Of a stretch of 64,000 nucleotides of DNA, positions 13,201 to 16,200 are shown piece by piece. The notes under the pieces are model-generated. The model worked only from the letters and a program-made list of their open reading frames with translations, was not told the DNA's origin and did no database searches. The DNA is taken from contig OZ038455.1 of assembly GCA_964036195.1 (NCBI GenBank), positions 9,317,855 to 9,381,854 of the forward strand. The letters run 5' to 3'. How positions within the stretch are numbered: the stretch's first letter is position 1; each line of letters begins with the position of its first letter. This DNA comes from Sphaerolaimus hirsutus. Its lineage: Eukaryota > Nematoda > Chromadorea > Monhysterida > Sphaerolaimidae. Made by a program: the position numbers and the translations under genes.

Positions 13201-16200
13201 CCTAAATCCAAACACCACCACTTAACACTCCAGCCATCGACAGACGTATCAACAAAAATCCTGGACAAAGAAAACAACCAAACGATCACACTAGTGCAAG
13301 TGGGTGCCGAACTTTCCGACTACGTGGAGTCTGTAGAGTGGGATTTGATGGCCGTGGCCAGCCACAGACACGAGCGACGATATTTGTGCTGCGACTATCC
13401 GTTAGATCAGGGCCAGGGGGCGGTCCCAGACCCTGTAAAGTGTGAAATAAAGTGTCAAATGTCATGTAAAGTGTAAATCAAAATAAAGAAAATAAATGAT
13501 TTTATTAGTAAAGTTTGCGTGACAATTGACACTTTACTTTACGTTTGTCATGACAATTGACACTTTGGATGACATTTCACATGACATTTGACACTACTTT
13601 ACAGTTTACAGGGTCTGGGATTGGCACCTGAACGGTTTTGTCTTTTTGCTGCACTGCTATTTCCTTGCCCAAAATCTACCTACCTAATTGGGAAGTCAGA
13701 TCTGTGTGCGTTCTTCCCAATTCAAATTGGGTATAGCGTTCTATATCGACTATATGTAGATTTAGTGTATCACATTTCCAATGCCATTTGCCCCCTTTCA
13801 GCTACATCGATATCACCTACAAAATTGAAATCAAACGCAAAACGCTGTTCTACACGGTCAACCTGATCACGCCGTGCATCGGCATCACATTTCTGACATG
13901 TTTGGTGTTTTACCTGCCCAGCGACAGCAACAACAAGATCACTCTGTGCGTGTCTATTTTGGTCACACTCACTGTGTTCTTCCTTCTGCTGGTTTGTTTG
14001 TTTTTGTCTATGATTTGTTTTAAGTTGACGGACTTTACACATTTCTATGTAGTGAAATAGACCGTTGTCGAATATTAACGTGTACACATTTTTAATTAAG
14101 TAAAATAAGTGTATACGGTACATACAATTTTTTTTAATCCACGTCAATTTCAGGTGGAAATAATCCCCCCAACAAGCCTGACTATTCCCCTGGTCGGTCG
14201 CTACTTGCTGTTCACAATGTTCATGGTCACAGTGTCTGTCGGCAGCACTGTCATGGTTAGCTGGTTACACTTTACACTAGGGTTGGGAATGGAACCCGCA
14301 AGCGAACCCGAACTGAGCCGATGTGCGGTTCCAAGCATATTTTGGTATCGAGAACCGCGAACTGGAACCGAAGTTTATAGCCGAACCGGGACTGAGCACT
14401 GGCGCTTAAAACCAGAACCAAACGTAACACAAACAATAACCGAAATTTTTCATAATTACCCGATCAAAATGAAGCGGTTGCATCATTGTTTTGGTCAGTT
14501 TCCTCCTACATAAATATGTACAAGTGATGGCGGTGATTTGATTTTATAGTCAAATCTGGAACCATCTCATAACCGTGCCGCGAAACGCTCTTTTGTTGCA
14601 CTTTTCACTGATCAGTGGAGAAACTGCGCAGATTCTAAACGTGCACTATCGCACGGTGATCGAGCCCGTGCCCAACTTGGTGCGCTGCGTTTTCATCGAC
14701 ACGCTGCCCTACTTGCTGTGCATCGAGCTGCCGCCGCGCATGCGCGACGACCGGAAAAGGAGAAGAGTGGTTTGTTCCTTGCATTTCCATTGGACTGTTG
14801 TGTTTGAGCGCCAGGGGACAAAAACACCGTGGCAAATCCGTTTTGGTGGCAGCGCCAGGGCCCAGGAGTAGTGATGTAAAAGCGCCTTGGTGCTAGCGCC
14901 AAAGCCAAAAGCGCCATGGAGCTTTTGGCGTTTGACGCTATTTTCACCCAGCGTCACGACAAAAATTTTTGCCGCTGACGCGTGGCGCTGCGCCAAAGGA
15001 AGAAGCACCATGGCGCTTCTGGCGCTTGGCGCTATTTTGCTCTGATACCGTGGCGTTGGCCCATTTCCGATGGGGGTCGAAAAAGCGCCATGGCTCCTGT
15101 TTGCAAGTCCTGGCGCTTTTCCATCACTATCCATAAGCCAGAGGCTTGGCAATGTGCCTAACATCCCAACACCCCGCGCAGTTGCGCAAGTGCGCCACGA
15201 CCACATCGAACCTGGCATCTGCCGGCTGCCCGTCACCGAGCAGCAGCACCGAGACCGGAGAATGCGAACCGGTGGGCGAGCGCGCCACCGACGAGAGCGT
15301 GCGCGCCTGGTGCCAATCCCAGACCCTGTAAAATGCCCTGTAAAATGTCAAATGTCACGCAAAGTGTCAAAAGTCACGTAAAATGCCCTGCAAAATGGCA
15401 ACCGTTGCCATTTTGCAGGGCATTTTACGTGACTTTTGACACTTTGCGTGACATTTGACATTTTACAGGGCATTTTACAGTGTCTGAGACTGCCCCCAGG
15501 GCGCAGGCCTCCGCGCACAGCACGCTGGAGAGGGCTCGGGGGCAGAGAGGGGTGAAATATAGCTGTGAGACAAATGCCTTTGCGGCTAATTCACCAAGAC
15601 ACCAGGCCGGCTGCACCAGGTTTTTTATCGTTATTTTTCGTGCGGCGCATTTTCGTTTTCAGTGTACCACTTGCATAAATCGCAGCGTTTTTCAGAGCCA
15701 TTCAATCAACGATGCCCCATATAACAGGCTTGAAGGCTGTTCATTGCAGAGACATCTAGAGAAATGTTTACTAAATGACAAGACACAAGATTATATTCAA
15801 TATAAGCGGACAAGATAACCGTACATCGTCGAAAATTCCCCCCTTGAATAACTCTCCCCTGTGGCTGGGTGTGGGAAAAAAAGATACCCCCCTCGAAAAA
15901 ACCAGAGTTGTTAGAATTACTGAACTTTTCTTAAAAGTATATGTAAATGTAAGTATTTTATTTTTACTCGCCACAAAGTATAGAAAATGTAAAATACTTT
16001 TTTTTACTCGTACTCACGCGTAAATGTGCGTAAATTACTTTTTTCGCCAGGAAAATGTAAAAACGAGTACTTTTCCCCTGGAAAATGTAAAAGCTACTAC
16101 TTTTTGCATGTGAGAGTGTGTTTTACACTGGAAGACGTCGAATAAATGTCGGTTTTTAGAGATTATTTGATATTTTTCAGAAAAATGATGTGATTTCTTG

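What the first reader, a model, noticed from the sequence alone, without database searches (positions are those of the whole stretch)
15182..15551. A foldback MITE forms an entire receptor intron, with the target duplication supplying the acceptor
Seen: exon 11 ends CCTG at 15309, the MITE starts GTGCCA at 15310 and ends CCCC at 15496, CAG follows, and coding resumes in phase at 15500 for a 52-bp exon. Intron 11 is therefore element plus one copy of the 3-bp target. The donor is the element terminus and the acceptor AG comes from the duplicated CWG. Removal restores the pre-insertion sequence exactly. This is the introner mechanism (transposon-born introns whose splicing is precise). The hairpin would also bring the two splice sites together in RNA. 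The left target reads CTG and the right CAG, so a T-to-A change may have created the AG. The same arrangement is in gene B (47669-47858).
Basis: partly seen in the sequence, partly recalled or inferred. Interest (0 to 1): 0.86.

Follow-up and report, generated by a model that had tools for sequence, protein, structure and literature searches.

The report
Hairpin transposon acting as an intron
A short hairpin-shaped jumping element sits exactly between two coding pieces of a nerve-receptor gene as if it were an intron, and a sister copy splits a second gene without an obvious splice signal, so this animal may show how jumping DNA turns into introns; no RNA data were available to prove it.

Summary
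In both copies of a duplicated nicotinic-receptor gene, a 187-bp near-perfect foldback MITE (15310-15496; 47669-47855) lies between two coding segments. Removing it with one 3-bp target copy gives an open 569-residue receptor (gene A). Genes A and B differ in 18 codons, 12 synonymous, so both look functional and the element must be removed from mRNA or its exon skipped.

The element-terminus donor (CTG|GTGCCA) is weak; CCT|GTAAAA, 18 bp inside, scores better, keeps frame and adds six codons. Exons 11+12 form a 180-bp phase 0-0 cassette, so skipping is also possible.

A second case: copy c2 (2808-2984, CTG/CTG target copies) interrupts a TMEM138 coding exon in the same orientation. It has no AG at the target copy, so exact GT-AG splicing is impossible there.

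Best reading: an introner-like insertion that became an intron. Bold reading: hairpin-guided mRNA excision tolerates such insertions before canonical sites evolve.

The parts
15182..15309 (+). Exon 11 of receptor gene A (128 bp, M3-M4 loop), ends ..GCC TG
   Evidence: Open in phase; 2 A/B differences, both synonymous. Codon score of the joined frame -0.02, top of six but level with one antisense frame at -0.03
15310..15496 (+). Foldback MITE copy c1 (gene A), GTGCCA...GCCCC, 187 bp
   Evidence: 97-nt arms 95% complementary; related copies elsewhere in the window
15307..15309 (+). Left target copy CTG (end of exon 11)
   Evidence: Compared with the other family flanks
15497..15499 (+). Right target copy CAG, the candidate acceptor AG
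   Evidence: Right flank is CTG at the other 4 of 5 loci; acceptor score 7.8
15328..15333 (+). Element-internal alternative donor CCT|GTAAAA
   Evidence: Scores 3.0 against -0.5 for the terminus; with the acceptor ending at 15499 keeps frame and adds CQSQTL
15500..15551 (+). Exon 12 of gene A (52 bp)
   Evidence: Joins exon 11 in phase; identical in gene B
10238..19118 (+). Nicotinic acetylcholine receptor gene A, 14 exons modelled, 569 aa
   Evidence: Gene model; nAChR matches
30813..50252 (+). Receptor gene B (duplicate); an LTR retrotransposon lies in one of its introns
   Evidence: Exons mapped; first exon with ATG; duplication blocks
47669..47855 (+). MITE copy c1 in gene B, same position, CAG at 47856-47858
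   Evidence: one base differs from copy A
2808..2984 (-). MITE copy c2 inside a TMEM138 coding exon, target copies CTG/CTG in gene sense
1378..3044 (-). TMEM138 homologue: exon pieces 3044-2985 and 2804-2743 split by c2, exon 2356-2185, exon 1563-1378; start codon not found, left edge uncertain
   Evidence: Pfam PF14935 E 3.5e-40 over residues 37-154 of the joined model; model
13417..13627 (-). MITE copy c3 inside a receptor intron (donor at 13401, GTTAGA), opposite orientation; second copy 44795-45028
8016..8218 (-). MITE copy c4, one end degraded; second copy 29271-29479
53299..53556 (-). MITE copy c5, target copies CAG/CAG on + strand

Best explanation
A 187-bp foldback MITE of a CWG-target family inserted into a 180-bp exon of a nicotinic receptor gene before that gene was duplicated, and it is now removed from the mRNA as an intron. 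The acceptor AG lies in the right target copy and was probably gained by a T-to-A change after insertion. The donor is either the element's own GT terminus (exact removal) or the GTAAAA 18 bases inside it (six extra codons). Shown: the anatomy, the intact reading frame, and an excess of synonymous change between the two genes. Inferred: that splicing happens, where the donor is, and the order of changes.
For: Element ends coincide with a phase-2 exon break in both genes. The joined gene A is open from ATG to stop, 569 aa. Genes A and B differ in 12 synonymous and 5 non-synonymous codons of 549 compared plus one non-synonymous change in exon 1. For 5 of 17, P is about 1e-4 if three quarters of random changes were non-synonymous, an assumption of mine; with 6 of 18 about 2e-4, worked by hand. 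Both A/B changes in exons 11+12 are synonymous third-position changes. Unspliced, the element brings a TAA and a frameshift. The acceptor scores 7.8, exceeded by 3 of the gene's 11 other modelled acceptors. In copy A the two arms differ at 5 of 93 positions, all within the outer 16 bases; two of these are changes of the right end not seen in c2, c3 or c5, so with the target base three changes sit beside the acceptor.
Against: No transcript data. The donor CTG|GTGCCA is weak. Exons 11+12 have no clearly alignable counterpart in the 22 homologues aligned, because the loop is variable. The codon test is weak: the joined frame scores -0.02 but an antisense frame scores -0.03, and 36% of composition shuffles of the 180 bp are also open; only 1 of 2000 shuffles scores as high, which shows coding-like order on one strand or the other. 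The cassette could be skipped in frame. The left and right target bases differ. The splice matrix rests on 11 modelled introns, not on cDNA.
Confidence: 0.6

Rival explanations
1. Exons 11+12 are skipped: the insertion disabled a symmetric cassette exon and the mature receptor joins exon 10 to exon 13.
For: Exon 10 ends in phase 0, exons 11+12 total 180 bp, exon 12 ends in phase 0. A short-loop Plectus homologue exists (P0002). The donor of the MITE intron is weak. The codon evidence for the two exons is not strand-specific.
Against: The 180 bp shows only synonymous A/B change, 2 of 2. The target-copy acceptor is strong and looks derived.
Confidence: 0.22
2. The element is cut out of mRNA through its hairpin by a non-spliceosomal route such as SOS splicing (excision followed by RTCB ligation), not by the spliceosome.
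For: Near-perfect hairpin whose predicted stem runs through both junctions. Copy c2 splits a TMEM138 exon with no AG at its target copy, yet the rest of the modelled gene is open. Such a pathway is described in metazoans (PMC13247085, passages seen).
Against: At c1 a GT and an AG sit exactly at the ends. That the route depends on inverted repeats is my recollection; the primary paper was not held. No RNA; c2 may simply have broken TMEM138.
Confidence: 0.12
3. Neither exon is used and both receptor genes are dying copies; the fit is coincidence.
For: The region is rich in repeats and foldbacks (19 listed).
Against: Both copies are open as modelled, with an excess of synonymous change.
Confidence: 0.06

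Closest known systems
Introners (Gozashti et al. 2022, PMC9860276; outline with abstract, sections 5 and 6, and passages seen)
   Same: Non-autonomous DNA element with TIRs and target copies forming a whole intron; cases that carry the 5' site and take the 3' site from the target copy are described there.
   Different: Only one such intron (in two gene copies) is seen in this window, the target base differs between sides, the whole element is a hairpin, and RNA support is absent. 'nematod' occurs 0 times in that main text.
NuwaI group of the PIF/Harbinger-ISL2EU-Spy superfamily (PMC4482050; passages seen)
   Same: 3-bp CWG target copies; mainly in animals.
   Different: No transposase partner was sought; the terminal sequences were not compared.
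SOS splicing of transposons from animal mRNA (described in PMC13247085, passages seen; primary paper not held)
   Same: Would remove a transposon from mRNA; RTCB joins the remaining pieces.
   Different: Not tested here; c1 has GT and AG at its ends.
Recent intron gains in Caenorhabditis (PMC9169325; passages seen)
   Same: New introns with gt-ag sites, 166 of 168 without change to the flanking exons; nematodes are prominent among the receptor's best matches.
   Different: There no source sequence was found for the 168 gains; here a candidate source element is visible.

Membership tests
Introner | Element similarity reaches both splice boundaries | tested here: met
   Element ends at 15310 and 15496, flush with the modelled exon break; boundaries themselves unproven without RNA
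Introner | Terminal inverted repeats | tested here: met
   97-nt arms, 95% complementary
Introner | Target site duplication | tested here: inconclusive
   CTG/CAG at c1 (2 of 3 bases); identical at c2 and c5; CAG/CTG at c3; one side only at c4
Introner | Several similar introns at different positions in the genome | tested here: inconclusive
   In the window 1 of 5 loci fits a GT-AG intron exactly; c2 sits in an exon without an acceptor. Whole-genome search unanswered
Introner | Splicing shown by RNA | not testable with these tools
   No RNA data
Introner | Uninterrupted exon in relatives | tested here: inconclusive
   Loop not clearly alignable for c1.
NuwaI (PIF/Harbinger-like) | 3-bp CWG target copies | tested here: met
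   c2 and c5 identical CWG copies; c1 and c3 differ at W
NuwaI (PIF/Harbinger-like) | Related transposase mobilises it | not tested
   No transposase search was made
SOS splicing substrate | Paired inverted repeats in the transcript (feature recalled) | tested here: met
   Predicted folds: c1 -146.7 and c2 -94.0 kcal/mol
SOS splicing substrate | Excision and ligation by RTCB rather than the spliceosome | not testable with these tools
   Needs RNA and knockdown

The most novel reading that the evidence does not exclude
Two stages of intron birth from one foldback MITE family lie in one window. In TMEM138 a copy with an intact CTG/CTG target interrupts a coding exon and can only be removed exactly by a route that does not need an AG, such as hairpin-guided (SOS-type) excision from mRNA. 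In the receptor gene another copy has been converted into an ordinary GT-AG intron by a T-to-A change in its target copy. Hairpin excision would thus be the bridge that lets transposons sit in exons until spliceosomal signals evolve.
Probability: 0.15. Interest if true: 0.88.

Novelty: new member of a known kind. Interest (0 to 1): 0.6.

Why it matters
Where new introns come from, and how a gene survives before splicing works, is an old open question. In Caenorhabditis, 168 gained introns had no identifiable source (PMC9169325, passages). Here a candidate source element, its target copies and an exon-interrupting sister copy are visible together in one animal genome, so RNA across two short stretches would decide between spliceosomal splicing, skipping and hairpin excision.

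Tried and rejected
Exact-pattern scans, with two different patterns, gave 0 in genome contigs and 1 in viral contigs; the viral hit matches the element over 22 bases and I treat it as chance.

Species: the receptor's 120 listed matches include nematodes (Globodera, Plectus, Steinernema) but also tapeworms, arthropods and others, at 35-54% identity. The Gypsy polyprotein's 120 listed matches are 26-38% identical. I read 'probably a nematode', not established.

TMEM138 in the protein collection: 198 candidates, none with E <= 0.001. PDB: one chance match. NCBIfam: none.

Receptor intron with copy c3: at first looked like a second MITE-born intron, but the donor that keeps the receptor frame is at 13401, 16 bases before the element, so I take c3 as an ordinary insertion in an existing intron.

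Of 19 foldbacks listed, the script found none with an end within 6 bases of a modelled receptor exon border; its palindrome for c1 (15297-15508) runs past the element into the exons, so the exact c1 coincidence rests.

Placement of 2 of 5 loci in modelled coding sequence: P about 0.025 by CWG count, a small and post hoc sample, so not relied on.

Full report
What is there. Gene A is a nicotinic acetylcholine receptor subunit modelled with 14 exons from ATG at 10238 to a stop at 19118, 569 residues, open throughout. Its M1-M3 region matches solved nAChR chains, and the model (without its first 21 residues) matches many animal subunits, nematodes prominent among the best. Gene B (30813-50252) is a segmental duplicate. 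In both, a 187-bp foldback sits between exon 11 and exon 12. The element plus one 3-bp target copy makes 190 bp, so unspliced it shifts the frame and brings a TAA.

Are exons 11 and 12 real? The joined 180 bp is open, but 36% of composition shuffles are too. The codon score is highest in the joined frame (-0.02) and only 1 of 2000 shuffles is as high, but one antisense frame scores -0.03, so this test does not settle the strand. A and B differ at two sites in exon 11 and none in exon 12, both synonymous. Over the whole gene there are 12 synonymous and 6 non-synonymous codon changes: 17 among the 549 codons and one in exon 1. Aligned to 22 homologues, the loop is too variable to show this stretch in others. 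So coding status is likely, not proven.

Which junction? I scored sites with a matrix from the gene's 11 other modelled introns, a small set. The acceptor GACTGCCCCCAG|G scores 7.8 (leave-one-out range of the others -2.3 to 8.6). The donor CTG|GTGCCA scores -0.5 (others -4.0 to 9.1; two of 11 are lower). Fifty-five GT/GC-AG pairs in the scanned stretch keep the frame without a stop; exact removal ranks 7th (7.3), the internal donor CCT|GTAAAA with the target-copy acceptor ranks 3rd (10.8, six extra codons), and a pair that trims both exons ranks 1st (13.5). The element's internal acceptors TTTTACAG, paired with the donors at 15309 or 15327, are not among the 25 best in-frame pairs shown; by my count they shift the frame. 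Hence 'precise at the terminus' is possible, not shown. Skipping exons 11+12 also keeps frame.

The family. Five loci with recognisable ends were found in the window, plus shorter pieces. Oriented with GTGCCA (GTGGTA in c5) first, the flanks are: c1 CTG/CAG; c2 CTG/CTG; c3 CAG/CTG; c5 CTG/CTG; c4 right CTG, left degraded. Thus the right flank is CTG at four of five loci, and c1 is the only one with an AG there. In c1 the right end carries two further changes not seen in c2, c3 or c5, both within its last 16 bases, while in copy A the rest of the stem is identical between arms. CWG target copies mark the NuwaI group of the PIF/Harbinger-like superfamily (PMC4482050, passages); that is a lead from the target copies alone.

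A second interrupted gene. On the minus strand at 1378-3044 lies a TMEM138 homologue (Pfam PF14935, E 3.5e-40). Copy c2 lies inside its N-terminal coding exon, again with GTGCCA at the 5' side of the gene. The Pfam match itself begins after the junction. The right target copy is CTG, so no exact GT-AG intron exists. Thirteen in-frame options were found, each adding or removing residues. Either c2 is a young or disruptive insertion, or it is removed some other way. The remaining modelled exons are open, and the arms of c2 differ (86% identical over ungapped columns, with gaps besides), which would suit an old, tolerated insertion; but arms may have differed at insertion. The start codon of this gene was not found.

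How it most likely works. A foldback MITE enters coding sequence at CWG. Its hairpin RNA (predicted c1 -146.7, c2 -94.0 kcal/mol) brings the exon ends together; the spliceosome uses a GT at or near the left end and, at c1, the AG of the target copy. All of this step is inference. The most novel reading adds that before such an AG exists, hairpin-guided excision with RTCB ligation (SOS splicing; PMC13247085, passages; its dependence on inverted repeats is recalled) removes the element.

Comparison with print. Introners that carry the 5' site and take the 3' site from the target copy are described (PMC9860276, passages), so the arrangement is a known kind. Among the listings of my searches (one search had no hit) I recognised no report of a MITE-born intron in nematodes; I saw titles and abstract starts, and passages only of the papers cited. 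A study using 104 nematode genomes found no source for 168 gained introns in Caenorhabditis (PMC9169325, passages).

Verdict. Observation confirmed; interpretation partly supported; new member of a known kind, with an unusual partner locus that makes the birth question testable.

Noticed in passing
1378-3044 (minus strand): TMEM138 homologue whose N-terminal coding exon is split by MITE copy c2 with an intact CTG/CTG target duplication and no canonical acceptor there.
   Followed up: yes
33195-42063: LTR retrotransposon (two 442-bp LTRs, 99.3% identical) inside an intron of receptor gene B, with two long open frames on the minus strand, one of them Gypsy pol-like.
   Followed up: partly
window-wide: Nineteen long foldback palindromes listed, duplicates included, among them 23266-24218 (about 950 bp, 97% self-match).
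   Followed up: no
24923-26580: Tandem array whose units resemble the inner part of the MITE family.
   Followed up: no
14880-15130 and 19400-20400: GC-rich short repeats around GCGCCATGGCGC, seen by eye in the sequence and translations.
   Followed up: no
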